A stretch of DNA of 36,084 bases from a virus: positions 1 to 36,084 of the IMG/VR virus record IMGVR_UViG_3300032053_000248; one strand, 5' to 3'. The translations under genes and the position numbers were made by a program. Below, one piece after another: positions 23,127 to 36,084 of the stretch (its first letter is position 1; every line of letters begins with the position of its first letter). The notes below the pieces were generated by a model. It did no database searches. It saw only the letters and a list, made by a program, of their open reading frames with translations, and was not told the DNA's origin.

Positions 23127-24092
23127 ATGAAAAGATTGCCAAATATTACGGAAGAAATGTGGTCATCTATAAATCCTGAAAATAGAAAAATAGTGGAAGA
23201 ATTTATAAGAGAGTCTACGAGCCTCAGTACAGATACTTTGAAGCAATATGAATCTGCTCTAAAAATATTTTATTATTGGGTAAAAGAGAATGCCAGCGAT
23301 AAAGTTTTTTATGAAATTAAACCAAAAGATTATCTCTTATATCAAAACTTTTTAATTCGTTACGGATTATCTTCGTCTGCTGTTAAAATAAAAAGAAGTT
23401 CTATTTCATCTTTAAATGGCTATGTTGAAATTTATTATTCAGACGAATTTCCAGAGTTTAGGAATTTCGTTAATAAAAAAATACCTGCCCCCGAAACAAA
23501 CTTTGTAAATGAAAAAAAACCATTGGATTTGGATGAATATAAAAACCTCTGCAATGAACTTGAAAAAATAGAGAAATGGCAAGAGCTTGCTTATTTAAAA
23601 TGCTCTTTTTCTAGTGGCGCTAGAAGAGGGGAAGTTAGACAATTTTTAAAAGAAATTGCAAAAGAAGAACCTAAGATAATAGGAAATACAAAAATATATT
23701 CTACGGGAGATATTCGTTGCAAAGGAAAAGGAAAAACAGGGAAAATAAGGAAACTTCAAATAGGCGAAGATGCCATGAATTCTATTAAAAAATGGTTAGA
23801 AATAAGAGGGGATGACGATTGCAAATATCTTTTTATTTCAAAAAGCAAAGAAGGTATTAATCAAATAGCACCAGAACGATTTAATTCTTGGTGTAGTACA
23901 ACGTTTGAAAAAATAGTTGGTAGGAGAATTCATCCCCACCTTTTCAGAGAGTCAAGAGCTACTTCAATGGTTGTTGAGCAGGGCAAGGACATAAAAATTG
24001 CCCAAAAACTATTAGGGCATAATTCATCATTAACAACCGAAATATATGTTGTAAGAGATGACAAGGATGATTCAGATGAAGCATTCACATAA
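23127..24092 (+). CDS. Tyrosine recombinase (XerC/D-like integrase)
   Basis: 321 residues, ATG 23127 directly abutting the previous stop (TAA-ATG). Residues 15-115 form a core-binding SAM-like domain (STDTLKQYESALKIFYYWVKEN). The catalytic domain has Arg166 (SGARRGEV), a beta-hairpin Lys near 202-207 (KGKGKTGKIRKL), His271 and Arg274 (PHLFRESRAT), His298 (LLGHNSSLTTEIYV) and the nucleophile Tyr307. All catalytic residues are present. Such enzymes integrate phage genomes, resolve dimers or invert segments. No attachment site or inverted repeat pair was found beside it. Sitting in the late tail block, it may act on concatemers or on a repeat region rather than integrate. Integrases usually lie near lysogeny genes, so this position is odd. 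Confidence 0.9.
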   Translation: MKRLPNITEEMWSSINPENRKIVEEFIRESTSLSTDTLKQYESALKIFYYWVKENASDKVFYEIKPKDYLLYQNFLIRYGLSSSAVKIKRSSISSLNGYVEIYYSDEFPEFRNFVNKKIPAPETNFVNEKKPLDLDEYKNLCNELEKIEKWQELAYLKCSFSSGARRGEVRQFLKEIAKEEPKIIGNTKIYSTGDIRCKGKGKTGKIRKLQIGEDAMNSIKKWLEIRGDDDCKYLFISKSKEGINQIAPERFNSWCSTTFEKIVGRRIHPHLFRESRATSMVVEQGKDIKIAQKLLGHNSSLTTEIYVVRDDKDDSDEAFT

Positions 24093-24159: not shown

Positions 24160-27100
24160 ATGCCAAGTATTACCATTGATATTTTAGCTAATACGAAAAA
24201 ATTTGTAGACTCATTTAGCCAGATTAACTCTATGATGAAGTCAAAGCCATTAATCATTCCCACAGCACAAACAAGCGCCACGTCGGGAAATATTACAGAA
24301 GCTAACGCGATTAATACATCAATAAAAGAAAGAGCCGTTGGAATTTCTGAAGTCATTACAAAGACAAAAGAATATACTGATGCCTTGGGGCAAAACAAGG
24401 TAATTACAACAGAGTTAGAAAAAACATGGATTGGCACTAACGGGGAAATATATAAAACAACAGAAAAAGTAGGAACTGGTTGGGATAACTTAACAAAAAA
24501 GCATAAATTATTAAAAGAGACAATGGCTACTCAAGATTTTAAAGTATTTGCAGAAAATCTTGAAAGAGCAAAATTAGATGTTGATAAAATGGCTAAAAGT
24601 GCCGAAGACTTTAAAGCTAAAGCAACAAATATGGCAGGAAAACCCGCAGAAGAAGTAAAAAAACTTACAACTCAAGTTATTGAAGCTGCCGCCGCTTTTG
24701 GTAAAATGGGGGCAGACGACAAAGGCTTAACTGACGCATACAACAAGGTTGTAAACTTGAGCAGGGCGCTTCAATTAGCACAGGAAAAAACAACACAAGC
24801 AGCTAACGCAAACAAGAGTTGGGGAGCAAGTTTAGCTGGTGCAATGAAACAAACCATTGCGTATGCCGCATCCCTTGGATTGATAAGAATGGCACAGCAG
24901 CAACTAAGGGAAGGTTTGCAGTATATCATTGAATTAAATAAAGAAATGGTTAGCATTCAAGTTCTTCAAGCAGAAGGTGCTCAAACCCCGGAAGAAATTA
25001 ATTCTTTGGCCTCAGCATATAATGATTTGGCAAAAGCAATGGGTGTAAGTACCCTTGAAATAGCTAAAGGAAGCCTTGAATGGCTACGTCAGGGTAAATC
25101 AATTGCAGAAACAACCGAATTACTTAAAGCTTCAACCGCTCTTTCTAAACTGGGTAACATGAGTGCGGCAGAAGCTACAGAGTATCTAACTTCAACCGTA
25201 AACTCTTACAAATTATCAACTGAAGATGCTATTAAAGTTGTAGATAAATTAATTGCAGTAGATAACAAAAGTGCTACTAGCGCAATGGAACTTGCAACTG
25301 CATTAAGATATTCAGCAGCAACAGCGGCTGAAGCTGGCGTTTCTCTTGAGCAATTAATTTCGTATATTGGTGTTGTATCATCTGTTACCAGAATGAATGC
25401 TGAATCTATAGGTCAAGCTTTCAAGACAATGCTGACCCGTATGCAAGATATTAAGGCTGGAAAGATTGATGAGGACGGTTTAGGAATTAACAACGTAGAA
25501 AGTGCTTTAGCCAGAGTTGATATAAAGCTCAGGGATAGCGCCACAAGTTTTAGAGATTTAGGCGGGGTTCTTGAAGAGCTTGCTACAAAATGGGATACTT
25601 TAAACGAAATTGAACAAGCAAACATCAGTAAAGCTATAGCCGGTATTCGTCAAGCAAACATGTTCCAAGTATTAATGCAGAACATGAATATTGCCTTAGG
25701 ATACCAAAAGGAACAATTTAACTCTGCTGGTTTGGCTATGGATAGGTATCAAATCTATCTTGAAGGAGTTGAAGCTGCTCAAAATAAACTTAAAACATCT
25801 GTGGAAGGTTTATGGCAAGACGCTATAGCCAGCGGAGCTATAAAAAGTGTATTAGATTTTGGTACTAGCCTTGCTGGATTAGTTGAAGCATTAGGTGGGT
25901 TGCAAGTAGTTTTAGGAATTACAATAATAGCGCTTGCCGCTTACAAAATAGCAGTATTAGCAGCGGCGGGTGCAGAAGCTCTTTGGTTAGCGCTTAGCCC
26001 TATTGGATGGGTAGTGGCAGTAGTTGCAGCGCTTGCTGTATTGGCTGCTGGATTTAATCATCTTACCGGAGGTGTCAAGAGAAACACAGACGCATTTCGA
26101 GAATCCAGCAAAGCATTACAAGATACATCTGATGCTACGAGAAGTTTAAAACATTCTCAAATCGAAACCGAAACTCTTTCTGCCAGATATGCAAAATTAG
26201 CTGGAACTATTAGAAGAACAGCAGATGAAGCTAAAGAGTTTACAGATATACAAAATAAATTGCATGACTTATTTCCAGAACTAAGTGGTACATATGATGA
26301 TAACCTTAATTTTCTAATATCATCTAGAGATGTATCTCAACAAATATTAGACATAGAAAGAGAAAAATATAAAGTTCTTTTGGCTGAGGGGCAAGAAAAA
26401 GGCAAGCAAGCTGCTATTGACGCCTTTAAAGTAATGGAAGATGATAAAAACAGATTGGCTGATGCCCAATATAAGCGTGACTTGGCGGCATATAATTATA
26501 ACCAAAATTTTATCAATGCTATTCATAGTCAAAAGTATAAAAACGCTAAAGAAATAGAAAATCTTCCTTATATGATAACTTTAAAAAGTCAGTTAGATGC
26601 AGCAGAAATTATTTTGAATGAAGCTAAAAAATCAACAAAATCTTTTGAGTTGACACTCAAAGATATATATATGAGATTAGGCGTTGAAGCTAGAAAAGCA
26701 CTGATAGAAGGGCTAGACCCAAACGGAACTAATTCTCTAATTCAAGGATTTATAAAAAAGGTAAATGACACAGAAGCTCTTCAGGCAGAAGTAAATATGG
26801 CTAAGATGCGAAGAGATGCCGGTATGTCACTTCGCCCTGAAGATATTTTTGGCAAAGCCACAGATGCCTTAACCTATGCTTCGGCTTTAAGTGAAATAAC
26901 GGATGGTTTAGAGGGAGTAAATGCTATTAAGAAAGCAATAGCTGAGAACGGGGGTATACTTCCAATAGATAAAATTAAAGACGCAGAAAAATTAGGTTTA
27001 GTGATAGAAAAAGACCTTAACGGGAATTTAATTATCACCGAGAAATCTTTAAATAGAGTAACAGAGAACGCATACTATGCCAGTGATGCATTTATAAATT

Positions 27101-29022
27101 TGACACCAGAACTGCAAAATGCAGCAAGAGCGGCGATTGATTTGGCCAATGCAGAAGAAGCAACAACAGATGCATTTTTCAGCAATCAACAAATGCTTGA
27201 AAGCGTTATGGAGTCTTATCGCCAAACGGGGGAATTAACTTATCAACAAATGATACAGATGATGAAAGCCGGATATGCAGAAGCTATAATGATTGACGTA
27301 AAAACCGGAAAAATAACATTAGATACGATAGCTCTCCATTATCTTGTTGTAGCAGAAGCCGAAGTCATTGCTACGGAAGCGTGGCATGCTTACCAACTTG
27401 CTCTAACGGGAAACGCTCTAGATACAGAAACAAGAAAACTATGGCTAAACTGGCAAGCCCTTGATGCTCTAGCTAAAAAATTAAAAGAAATGCCAGATGC
27501 AATAACAATCCCAACATATGACGGCGGAGGTGGTGGAGGTGGTGGAGGAAAATCAGAAGAAGAGATAAGGTTGGAAGGAGAAATTAAACTTCTTGAAAAG
27601 AAAAAGAAAGCTCTCCAAGACCAACTCGAAGAATATAAAAAATACATCGCCGCACAAAAAGAATCTCTAAAGCGCATGAAAGAAGAGAAAGACTTCACTG
27701 ATGAATTGATGAAGAAGAACTTGGATTTGGCTAAATTAAAAGCCAGAATCACCATCCTTTCTTTAGATGATAGCGAAGAAGCTACCGCAGAGAGACTAAA
27801 GCTCGAAGAGGAAGCCGGTCAACTTGAAACTGAAATTACCAAAGATAAGGAAGACAGAAAGTACGAACTCCAAATACAGGCATTAGATGACTTAGAAAAA
27901 GCATTTGAAGAAATGATTAACAAACAAATTGAAGCAATTGACACCATGATAGACAAGCTTCGAGAACAAATAAGCGCCTTGCAAAAGGGGTCTTCATCTG
28001 GTGCTAATACTATTGTAAAGAATAATGACAAGATAAAAATGTCATATGCCGAGATGATGGCAACAATTACCCAAATGATGAAAGATACATTCGGAGAAAT
28101 AGATGTTGCGCATCAGGCGTGGGTTGATGAAACAGTAGAGGGTATGCTCAGACAAGGAAAGTCTTATGATGAGATATTAGAAAAACTAAGAGAGATGCTT
28201 CGCTTGCAGGATGAGTTATCCAAAAAAGAGGGTACTACTCCGCCTCCGGTTATCCCCCCTCCCACTGGCAAAGGTTGTTTTATAGCAGGAACAATGGTTT
28301 CTATGGCAGACGGGACAATTACACCAATAGAAAAAATCAATGTTGGAGATTTAATAAAATCATATGATTTTGAACAAGATAAATTAATTGACACAACAAT
28401 AACTGAAACACTACATCATAAAAAAGAAGAAGTTGAAGAATATATTGTACTAAATGATTTCCTTAGCGTAACTCCCAATCACGCAATGTATGTGGAAGGT
28501 TGGTGGAAGCCTGTTAAAGATTTGACAATTGGCGAATACTTAACAGATATTCATGGAGTAAAAATAGAGGTTGCATCGTTGGAATGGGTTAAAGCAAGTG
28601 TTCCAGTATATAACCTTCATACAAACCATGAATCCCACAACTATTTTGCCAACGGGATTCTTGTTCATAACATCTATAAAAAGCATGAGGGTGGAATTGT
28701 TGAACAGCATCATGGAGGAGAGTTCGCCGGAAAACTAAAAAGCAATGAAGTATTTTCCAAGTTATTAAAAGGCGAATATGTTGCTACAGAAGGACAAATG
28801 AGTAACTTTATGGGTAACATACTTCCTAGAATTGCAAATCAACCAACAGGAACTTCTATTAAAAACGGGGAAACAAATATTTCCATGCCAATTCACGTTG
28901 AAGGCAATCTTGATAAATCTGTTCTACCCGACTTGGAAAAGATGATGAACAAAACATTTGAAAAAATGAATGCGGCATTAATGAGCAGAGGATATAAACG
29001 GTCAACTGACCAAGTTCTATAA
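24160..29022 (+). CDS. Tape measure protein with embedded Hint domain
   Basis: 1620 residues, ATG 24160 with GAAGGAGG upstream. The longest gene in the tail block, before Dit, is the tape measure protein that sets tail length. Residues about 255-430 match the phage-tail minor protein core (ELNKEMVSIQVLQAEGAQTP ... AMELATALRYSAATAAEAGVSLEQLISYIGVV). Hydrophobic helices occupy 583-632. A Gly run (about 1122-1130) and long coiled coils (about 1135-1290) follow, then a Pro-rich linker (TPPPVIPPPTGKG). Residues 1373-1504 are a Hint domain. The C-terminal 116 residues start IYKKHEGGIV, with NEVFSKLLKGEYVATEGQM, the normal end of such proteins. The chain may be cut at the Hint domain. A serine or cysteine needed for splicing is missing after its final Asn. 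Confidence 0.9.
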   Translation: MPSITIDILANTKKFVDSFSQINSMMKSKPLIIPTAQTSATSGNITEANAINTSIKERAVGISEVITKTKEYTDALGQNKVITTELEKTWIGTNGEIYKTTEKVGTGWDNLTKKHKLLKETMATQDFKVFAENLERAKLDVDKMAKSAEDFKAKATNMAGKPAEEVKKLTTQVIEAAAAFGKMGADDKGLTDAYNKVVNLSRALQLAQEKTTQAANANKSWGASLAGAMKQTIAYAASLGLIRMAQQQLREGLQYIIELNKEMVSIQVLQAEGAQTPEEINSLASAYNDLAKAMGVSTLEIAKGSLEWLRQGKSIAETTELLKASTALSKLGNMSAAEATEYLTSTVNSYKLSTEDAIKVVDKLIAVDNKSATSAMELATALRYSAATAAEAGVSLEQLISYIGVVSSVTRMNAESIGQAFKTMLTRMQDIKAGKIDEDGLGINNVESALARVDIKLRDSATSFRDLGGVLEELATKWDTLNEIEQANISKAIAGIRQANMFQVLMQNMNIALGYQKEQFNSAGLAMDRYQIYLEGVEAAQNKLKTSVEGLWQDAIASGAIKSVLDFGTSLAGLVEALGGLQVVLGITIIALAAYKIAVLAAAGAEALWLALSPIGWVVAVVAALAVLAAGFNHLTGGVKRNTDAFRESSKALQDTSDATRSLKHSQIETETLSARYAKLAGTIRRTADEAKEFTDIQNKLHDLFPELSGTYDDNLNFLISSRDVSQQILDIEREKYKVLLAEGQEKGKQAAIDAFKVMEDDKNRLADAQYKRDLAAYNYNQNFINAIHSQKYKNAKEIENLPYMITLKSQLDAAEIILNEAKKSTKSFELTLKDIYMRLGVEARKALIEGLDPNGTNSLIQGFIKKVNDTEALQAEVNMAKMRRDAGMSLRPEDIFGKATDALTYASALSEITDGLEGVNAIKKAIAENGGILPIDKIKDAEKLGLVIEKDLNGNLIITEKSLNRVTENAYYASDAFINLTPELQNAARAAIDLANAEEATTDAFFSNQQMLESVMESYRQTGELTYQQMIQMMKAGYAEAIMIDVKTGKITLDTIALHYLVVAEAEVIATEAWHAYQLALTGNALDTETRKLWLNWQALDALAKKLKEMPDAITIPTYDGGGGGGGGGKSEEEIRLEGEIKLLEKKKKALQDQLEEYKKYIAAQKESLKRMKEEKDFTDELMKKNLDLAKLKARITILSLDDSEEATAERLKLEEEAGQLETEITKDKEDRKYELQIQALDDLEKAFEEMINKQIEAIDTMIDKLREQISALQKGSSSGANTIVKNNDKIKMSYAEMMATITQMMKDTFGEIDVAHQAWVDETVEGMLRQGKSYDEILEKLREMLRLQDELSKKEGTTPPPVIPPPTGKGCFIAGTMVSMADGTITPIEKINVGDLIKSYDFEQDKLIDTTITETLHHKKEEVEEYIVLNDFLSVTPNHAMYVEGWWKPVKDLTIGEYLTDIHGVKIEVASLEWVKASVPVYNLHTNHESHNYFANGILVHNIYKKHEGGIVEQHHGGEFAGKLKSNEVFSKLLKGEYVATEGQMSNFMGNILPRIANQPTGTSIKNGETNISMPIHVEGNLDKSVLPDLEKMMNKTFEKMNAALMSRGYKRSTDQVL
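28276..28671 (+). other. Hint domain (bacterial-intein-like) inside the tape measure gene
   Basis: Residues 1373-1504, 132 long, the size of a mini-intein without endonuclease. Block A begins with Cys1373 (CFIAGTMVSMADGTITPIEK, then VGDLIKSYD). Block B is VTPNHAMYV with the conserved T-x-N-H. Blocks F and G are VYNLHTNHESHNYFANGILVHN. It ends His1503-Asn1504 and is followed by Ile1505, not Cys, Ser or Thr, as in type B bacterial-intein-like domains. The expected chemistry is N-terminal acyl shift at Cys1373 and Asn1504 cyclisation, giving cleavage rather than protein splicing. The domain is flanked by a Pro-rich linker on the left and the usual tape-measure C-terminus on the right. Confidence 0.85.
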
Positions 29023-34776: not shown

Positions 34777-36084
34777 ATGGCTCTTTTAAAAGTGCGTAAT
34801 GAAACCAATGATGGTTGGTATGAATTTGGAGGAACAACAGGAGCACAAGGCTTTACTGGACTTCAAGGAATTACAGGCATAGGAACTACTGGTATACAAG
34901 GAGTAACCGGAATACAAGGTGTTACAGGCATGGGGGTTACAGGTGAAGGAGTCACTGGACTTCAAGGGGTTACGGGTGTTACAGGTATACAAGGGGCTAC
35001 TGGATATGGAAGTGGTAATACTGGAAGCCAAGGTGAAACAGGTTTACAAGGCGTAACAGGAATATCAAATGTTCCCGGAGTTACTGGTATACAAGGAGTA
35101 ACAGGACTCCAAGGAGAAACCGGAATACAAGGTGCTACAGGTATGGGAGTTACTGGCGAAGGAGTTACCGGACTTCAGGGTATTACTGGAGTTACAGGCA
35201 TCCAAGGTATAACCGGACTCGGAATAACTGGAGTTACAGGTTTACAAGGTTTAACTGGTGTAACAGGCTTGCAGGGACAAACTGGAGTTTCTAATGTTCC
35301 CGGAGTTACTGGTGTTACTGGTATACAAGGTGTGACTGGTTTAGGGATAACCGGAGCTACAGGGTTACAAGGCCTAACAGGTGTTACAGGTTTACAAGGT
35401 CAAACTGGTATTCAAGGAGTTACAGGTGTACAAGGCATTACTGGACTTGGCACAACCGGAGTTACCGGACTACAAGGTATTACTGGTGTATCTAATGTTG
35501 CTGGAGCAACAGGTCAAACTGGTGTACAAGGTACTACAGGTTTACAAGGTATTACTGGTTTAGGAATAACTGGTGTTACCGGACTTCAAGGTATTACTGG
35601 TATATCAAATGTTGCTGGAGCTACAGGTCAAACTGGTATTCAAGGAGTTACCGGATTACAAGGCTTAACAGGTGTTACAGGATTGCAAGGGCAAACGGGT
35701 GCTGCATCTACTATACAAGGAATTACTGGTGTTACCGGCATCCAAGGCATAACTGGTTTAGGGACAACAGGCTCTACAGGCTTACAGGGCTTGACTGGCG
35801 TAACAGGCTTACAAGGCATTACTGGAATCTCAAACGTTCAGGGGGCAACTGGTGTAACCGGAATTCAAGGTGTGACTGGTTTGGGGACAACAGGTGTTAC
35901 AGGCTTACAAGGTTTGACAGGTGTAACAGGTTTACAGGGACAAACCGGAGCGGATATACAGGGTTTGACTGGCGTAACAGGTTTACAGGGACAAACTGGT
36001 GCTGGAGTACAAGGATTAACGGGTGTAACAGGGTTACAAGGTTTGACAGGTGTAACGGGTTTACAGGGTCAAACGGGTGCGGGT
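34777..36084 (+). CDS. Collagen-like fibre protein, N-terminal part (3' end outside window)
   Basis: 436 codons, ATG 34777 with AAGGAGGTG upstream, open to the last base. The first 19 residues ([19 protein letters not shown]) form a short head found at the start of phage fibre proteins and probably bind Tal. From there it is almost entirely Gly-X-Y triplets ([12 protein letters not shown]), with Thr at most Y positions and no typical Pro-rich clamp. The tract is broken by five SNV motifs (near 35067, 35289, 35490, 35607, 35828), where Asn stands in place of Gly, and by two-residue steps such as GLG or GMG. In sequence and phase it matches the gene cut by the left edge of the window. It probably makes a long trimeric fibre. 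Confidence 0.9.

What the first reader, a model, noticed from the sequence alone, without database searches (positions are those of the whole stretch)
28276..28671. Intein-like Hint domain in the tape measure protein, without a splicing nucleophile
A 132-residue Hint domain (Cys1373 to Asn1504) sits exactly between a Pro-rich linker and the conserved C-terminal tail of the tape measure protein, and is followed by Ile rather than Cys/Ser/Thr. This predicts self-cleavage, releasing a 116-residue C-terminal piece. Programmed autoprocessing of a tape measure protein would be a new way to mature the tail tip or to release a piece into the host.
Basis: partly seen in the sequence, partly recalled or inferred. 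Interest (0 to 1): 0.85.

Follow-up and report, generated by a model that had tools for sequence, protein, structure and literature searches.

The report
Self-cleaving domain in phage tape measure
A phage's tail-length ("tape measure") protein carries, just before its conserved end piece, an intein-related domain with all its self-cutting residues but without the residue needed to rejoin the ends, and several unrelated phages share this layout, which suggests a tail protein that cuts itself where other phages depend on a protease.

Summary
Residues 1373-1504 of the 1,620-residue tape measure protein (TMP) form a complete Hint domain (Pfam, NCBIfam, PDB sequence and fold matches). Cys1, TxxH and His-Asn are intact and the next residue is Ile. 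At least eleven related TMPs keep the same C-terminal tail without the domain, so it is an extra module in a variable linker. A second TMP (L170) has it at 66% identity, among the best conserved parts of the protein, with Ala instead of Ile at +1. Four well-identified TMP lineages (window/L170, L085/L091/L092, L181, L235), and probably a fifth (L252, L296), carry a Hint 92-125 residues from the C-terminus, directly before the Gly-Gly tail motif. A sixth group (L216/L231/L245) carries one in mid-protein. Lambda and T5 TMPs are known to be cleaved near the C-terminus during tail assembly. Best explanation: a bacterial-intein-like (BIL, A-type-like) autocleaving module that separates the rod from its tip-anchored tail in cis. 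Cleavage itself is inferred, not shown. The toxin-release idea has no support: the C-terminal piece is an ordinary TMP tail. I found no published report of a Hint domain in a TMP within the open-access library searched.

The parts
24160..29022 (+). tape measure protein gene, 1,620 aa
   Evidence: TIGR01760 4e-33, PF10145 3e-32, PHROG tape-measure families
24919..25953 (+). TP901-type tape-measure domain (aa 254-598)
   Evidence: TIGR01760 stretch
28234..28275 (+). Pro-rich linker TTPPPVIPPPTGKG (aa 1359-1372)
   Evidence: sequence; differs almost completely in L170 (12% identity)
28276..28671 (+). Hint domain, Cys1373-Asn1504, 132 aa, no homing endonuclease
28276..28278 (+). Cys1373 (Hint Cys1), predicted N-S acyl shift nucleophile, preceded by Gly1372
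   Evidence: conserved in all TMP Hints found
28471..28482 (+). block B TxxH motif (Thr1438-Pro-Asn-His1441)
   Evidence: invariant T and H in the five-sequence TMP Hint alignment
28666..28671 (+). block G His1503-Asn1504, predicted Asn cyclisation / C-terminal cleavage
   Evidence: conserved in all TMP Hints
28672..28674 (+). +1 residue Ile1505; Ala in L170, L085, L092, L181; Leu in L091; Lys in L235
28672..29019 (+). conserved C-terminal TMP tail (aa 1505-1620), the predicted C-terminal cleavage product
   Evidence: same tail without Hint in at least 11 IMG/VR contigs

Best explanation
It is an A-type-BIL-like autocleaving Hint domain placed between the body of the tape measure protein and its C-terminal tail. 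After folding, Cys1373 forms a thioester at Gly1372, which water or a thiol can cleave. His1503-Asn1504 cyclise and cut before Ile1505. With no Cys/Ser/Thr at +1, efficient rejoining is not expected, so the TMP body (about 1,372 aa) is separated from the 116-residue tail. The tail probably stays bound to the tail-tip hub, as the cleaved C-terminal fragment of T5 pb2 does, while the freed body can later be ejected. This would do in cis what a proteolytic step does for lambda gpH and T5 pb2. Shown: domain, fold, intact catalytic residues, position, conservation, recurrence. Inferred: cleavage, its timing and order, and the role in tail maturation.
For: Complete Hint by sequence and fold. Catalytic Cys1, TxxH and HN are kept across TMP Hints mostly only about 25-40% identical to the window's, while +1 varies I/A/A/A/A/L/K. 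The Hint is among the best conserved parts of the protein between window and L170 (66% identity, against 60% for the TP901 domain, 61% tail, 25% mid-region; dN 0.27, dS near saturation). The same placement, 92-125 aa from the C-terminus and directly before the GG tail motif, is found in four identified TMP lineages: window/L170, L085/L091/L092, L181 and L235; L252 and L296 probably add a fifth. The tail occurs without Hint in 11 related contigs. Lambda and T5 TMPs are cleaved during tail morphogenesis; T5's C-terminal fragment stays in the tip (PMC10038345, PMC10713586, PMC3224144). A-type BILs keep His-Asn and can cleave at their C-terminus without ligating (PMC7765530).
Against: No cleavage data of any kind. 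At least 11 relatives lack the domain, including the nearest TMP body, L010 (69% identity), so it is not essential to this tail type, and presence is patchy. One TMP group (L216/L231/L245) has its Hint in mid-protein, which does not fit a tip-release role. L252 has Ser at +1 and might splice. Ile at +1 could slow C-terminal cleavage (general knowledge).
Confidence: 0.55

Rival explanations
1. Splicing or partly splicing intein-like parasite: the domain excises itself (well or poorly) and restores a normal TMP, so it has no function for the phage.
For: Patchy presence: window groups with Hint-less L010 and L170 with Hint-less L011, as for a mobile module. BIL domains without a +1 nucleophile have been reported to splice as well as cleave (paper title cited in PMC7765530). 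L252 has Ser at +1.
Against: No homing endonuclease in 132 aa. The +1 residue varies even between window and L170 (Ile/Ala), unlike inteins, which require it. The insertion site is a variable Pro/Gly-rich linker, not a conserved motif.
Confidence: 0.15
2. Ligating rather than merely cleaving: the thioester at Gly1372 is attacked by an amine or thiol of a partner (hub protein, another TMP copy), covalently anchoring the rod at the tail tip.
For: Gly or another small residue precedes Cys1 in most TMP Hints, suited to an activated C-terminus; BILs are thought to feed protein variability; the tail-tip hub lies next to the TMP C-terminus in T5.
Against: No partner nucleophile identified; a covalent anchor would hinder TMP ejection during infection.
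Confidence: 0.1
3. Catalytically silent folded insert or linker domain that survives in the TMP without being cleaved.
For: Nothing measured shows cleavage; the domain is tolerated in a variable linker.
Against: Cys1, TxxH and HN are kept while the rest diverges to about 25-40% identity across lineages; the Hint is conserved as well as the TMP's own core domain. A silent insert should lose these.
Confidence: 0.12
4. Polymorphic-toxin-like release of an effector into the host, as with pretoxin Hint domains.
For: PT-HINT is the best-scoring Pfam model for the isolated domain, and similar Hint domains occur in polymorphic-toxin proteins of bacteria.
Against: The released piece is the standard TMP tail, shared with at least 11 Hint-less TMPs, with no toxin family hit.
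Confidence: 0.03

Closest known systems
A-type bacterial intein-like (BIL) domains, compared through the Clostridium thermocellum BIL structure (PDB 2LWY; its A-type label is from memory)
   Same: Fold (TM 0.73/0.86), size (132 vs 138 aa), sequence match 3e-8; N-terminal Cys, HN C-terminus, no obligatory +1 nucleophile
   Different: Host protein is a phage tape measure protein with a conserved tail after the domain, not a hypervariable bacterial protein; activity untested
Proteolytic C-terminal processing of lambda gpH and T5 pb2 tape measure proteins
   Same: The TMP is cut during tail assembly; in T5 a C-terminal piece is split off and remains in the tip
   Different: Those use a proteolytic step; here the cutter would be part of the TMP. 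T5's piece carries a muralytic motif; none was found in this tail
BIL domains of the Tetrahymena BUBL loci (6Y75, 6TMM)
   Same: Best sequence (2e-11) and fold (3e-12) match
   Different: From a ciliate locus, not a virion protein
Pretoxin Hint (PF07591) of polymorphic toxins
   Same: Same Pfam model, above cut-off
   Different: No toxin after the domain; the host protein is structural
Phage inteins (terminase, helicase, RNR)
   Same: Hint fold, Cys1, TxxH, HN
   Different: Inteins have Cys/Ser/Thr at +1 and sit in conserved sites; this does not

Membership tests
A-type BIL domain | Hint fold with N-terminal Cys/Ser and block B TxxH | tested here: met
A-type BIL domain | conserved His-Asn C-terminus with variable, mostly non-nucleophilic +1 | tested here: met
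   I, A, L, K at +1 in TMP Hints
A-type BIL domain | short domain without homing endonuclease | tested here: met
   132 aa
A-type BIL domain | located in hypervariable regions of non-conserved proteins | tested here: inconclusive
   variable linker, but of a conserved structural protein
A-type BIL domain | autocleavage at N- and/or C-terminus | not testable with these tools
   needs expression or virion mass spectrometry
A-type BIL domain | groups with A-type rather than B-type BILs in a comparison of type profiles | not tested
   no A/B-type profile library at hand
Intein | Cys/Ser/Thr at +1 | tested here: not met
   Ile1505; Ala in L170
Intein | inserted in a conserved motif of the host protein | tested here: not met
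   site is a variable Pro/Gly linker
Intein | splicing with ligation of flanks | not testable with these tools
   needs experiment
Pretoxin Hint / polymorphic toxin | PF07591 above curated cut-off | tested here: met
   37.7 bits isolated and 30.8 in the whole protein, cut-off 27.7
Pretoxin Hint / polymorphic toxin | C-terminal toxin domain after the Hint | tested here: not met
   ordinary TMP tail shared with Hint-less TMPs
Hedgehog-type Hog-Hint | Hint as last catalytic unit before a sterol-recognition region | tested here: not met
   downstream region is the TMP tail; HN end kept as in inteins

The most novel reading that the evidence does not exclude
Several unrelated phage lineages have independently installed a BIL-type Hint between the rod and the C-terminal tail of the tape measure protein, making its maturation autocatalytic and independent of any protease.
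Probability: 0.45. Interest if true: 0.8.

Novelty: new variant of a known kind. Interest (0 to 1): 0.62.

Why it matters
C-terminal cleavage of tape measure proteins is a known but poorly explained step of siphophage tail assembly. A TMP with its own cutter makes that step testable with two point mutations and would give a biological role to a BIL domain inside a virion protein. It also links phage structural proteins to the wide, mostly unexplained set of Hint domains seen in phage genes.

Tried and rejected
Toxin or effector release: rejected because the tail is shared with Hint-less TMPs. Ordinary intein: disfavoured by the +1 residue and by the site. Assembly artefact: rejected because L170, from another metagenome, has the same order. 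First scans with single proteins and a Hint-plus-tail DNA pattern found nothing; alignment-based scans did. The genome-contig scan found only four distant tails, and a sample of 295 genomes of one bacterial order gave only weak Hint matches, none of them in a TMP-profile ORF, so the host is unknown. The second structure job (Hint plus tail, 10 sequences) was poor (pLDDT 55), so only the Hint model is used. MT836326 looked like a phage hit but is an RHS/YD-repeat protein. A tree of Hints leaves it open whether TMP Hints had one or several origins.

Full report
OBSERVATION. The ORF at 24160-29022 (+) encodes 1,620 aa and is a tape measure protein: TIGR01760 4e-33, PF10145 3e-32 and PHROG tape-measure families to 2e-82. 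The record is a 36-kb IMG/VR virus contig with SPbeta-like terminase relatives in Bacillota phages. Residues 1373-1504 (28276-28671) form a Hint domain: PF07591 3e-9 and PF01079 3.7e-9, both above Pfam's cut-offs, and TIGR01443 above its cut-off. The closest solved sequences are Tetrahymena BIL2 and Clostridium thermocellum BIL. An AlphaFold model built from 33 Hint sequences has mean pLDDT 85, about 95 over most of the domain, and finds the same structures first: 6Y75 TM 0.76/0.80, 2LWY TM 0.73/0.86.

CLEAN EXTRA MODULE. TMPs about 50-69% identical in the TP901 region (L010-L014, L016, L174, L178, L179 and others; identities) keep the tail motif (H.GG.V ... SNEVF.KLL.GEY..TE) but have no Hint. 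In 11 distinct contigs the region before the tail is a variable, often Pro- or Gly-rich linker. The tail, including a predicted C-terminal helix (low-confidence model), is therefore a normal TMP part and not a toxin.

CONSERVATION. L170 (IMGVR_UViG_3300031539_002097) has the same arrangement. Its Hint is 66% identical to the window's, against 60% for the TP901 region, 61% for the tail and 25% for the middle; dN is 0.27 with dS near saturation, so the ratio is only a rough sign of purifying selection. The +1 residue changes from Ile to Ala. In a tree of the TP901 region the window groups with Hint-less L010 and L170 with Hint-less L011, with moderate support. The module is thus patchy, which implies losses or exchange.

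RECURRENCE. Among other TMPs fetched, L085 (133-kb contig) has a Hint between a Gly-rich linker and the GGYTGEW...LHEKELVLN tail. L091 and L092 are the same, read with TGA as Trp. L181, a TMP with an NlpC/P60 domain, has VHN-Ala then ATGGIVPGPM. L235, a PF10145 TMP (4e-31), has AHN-Lys then QSGGYAF. The distance from Hint end to protein end is 116, 123, 124, 115, 125, 93 and 92 aa for window, L170, L085 (as L090), L091, L092, L181 and L235. L252/L266 (96 aa, Ser at +1) and L296 (101 aa, Leu at +1) are giant ORFs with a TMP-like tail (IGNEK motif) but no N-terminal family hit, so they count only as probable. L216/L231/L245 are TMPs with the Hint in mid-protein between Gly-rich linkers. Cys1, TxxH and HN are invariant in the five-sequence TMP Hint alignment; in the 33-row alignment N is invariant and C1, T and H are at least 90% conserved. 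Frequency is low: 1 of 80 loci in the TMP-domain scan, which kept only the best-scoring relatives. The Hint tree shows several deeply separated TMP groups but does not exclude one origin.

MECHANISM. Lambda gpH and T5 pb2 are cut by proteolysis during tail morphogenesis. In T5 the cut is after R1127, and the C-terminal fragment stays in the hub cup as a trimeric coil; DT57C keeps its fragment in the tip after ejection (PMC10038345, PMC10713586, PMC3224144). If T5 pb2 is about as long as DT57C's TMP (coil to residue 1227), that fragment is about 100 residues, close to the 92-125 found here; this is an inference. A-type BIL domains keep His-Asn, cleave at their C-terminus and are reported not to ligate their flanks (PMC7765530). 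The most economical reading is an in-cis replacement of that proteolytic step. Cleavage, its timing and the fate of the tail are not shown.

MEMBERSHIP AND NOVELTY. By sequence and fold it looks like an A-type-like BIL; activity and the A/B typing were not tested. It fails two intein criteria (+1 residue and conserved site) and the toxin criterion of pretoxin Hints. Open-access full-text searches for Hint, intein-like, autoproteolysis and tape measure protein listed no paper that, from its title, abstract or the passages read, reports a Hint in a TMP; not every listed paper was read, and subscription papers were not searchable. I rate it a new variant of a known kind.

Noticed in passing
window 34777-36084 and 1-1746: Both contig ends lie in a collagen-like tail-fibre ORF that joins in frame to about 1,017 codons; the ends share a 21-bp repeat unit with two mismatches, so the contig is broken, or circularly permuted, inside a repeat.
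   Followed up: partly
window 23127-24092; L004, L006: A tyrosine recombinase gene lies just before the TMP; similar order in Psychrobacillus phage Perkons and Bacillus phage vB_BcoS-136.
   Followed up: no
L298, L300, L302 (perhaps also L184, L190, L207, L228, L251): Viral contigs encode proteins with two or three Hint domains in tandem, a few residues apart, ending VHN-K-stop.
   Followed up: no
L091, L092, L216, L231, L245: TMP genes use TGA as a sense codon, apparently Trp: 21-25 in-frame TGA against 2-4 TGG and no TAA/TAG in L216/L231/L245.
   Followed up: partly
L216, L231, L245: Hint in the middle of the TMP, nearly identical among the three while the upstream linker differs, which suggests recent transfer of the module.
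   Followed up: partly
L261 5164-10640 (Ruminococcus phage NatCom_28775): Three neighbouring ORFs carry similar Hint domains followed by different 116-126 aa C-termini, resembling polymorphic-toxin cassettes in a phage.
   Followed up: no
L007 23364-29880 (Thomasclavelia phage TR-TP1): The annotated TMP is split by HNH endonuclease genes.
   Followed up: no
L002 (MT836326): A record named Bacteriophage sp. encodes RHS/YD-repeat proteins with a Hint and is probably bacterial.
   Followed up: no
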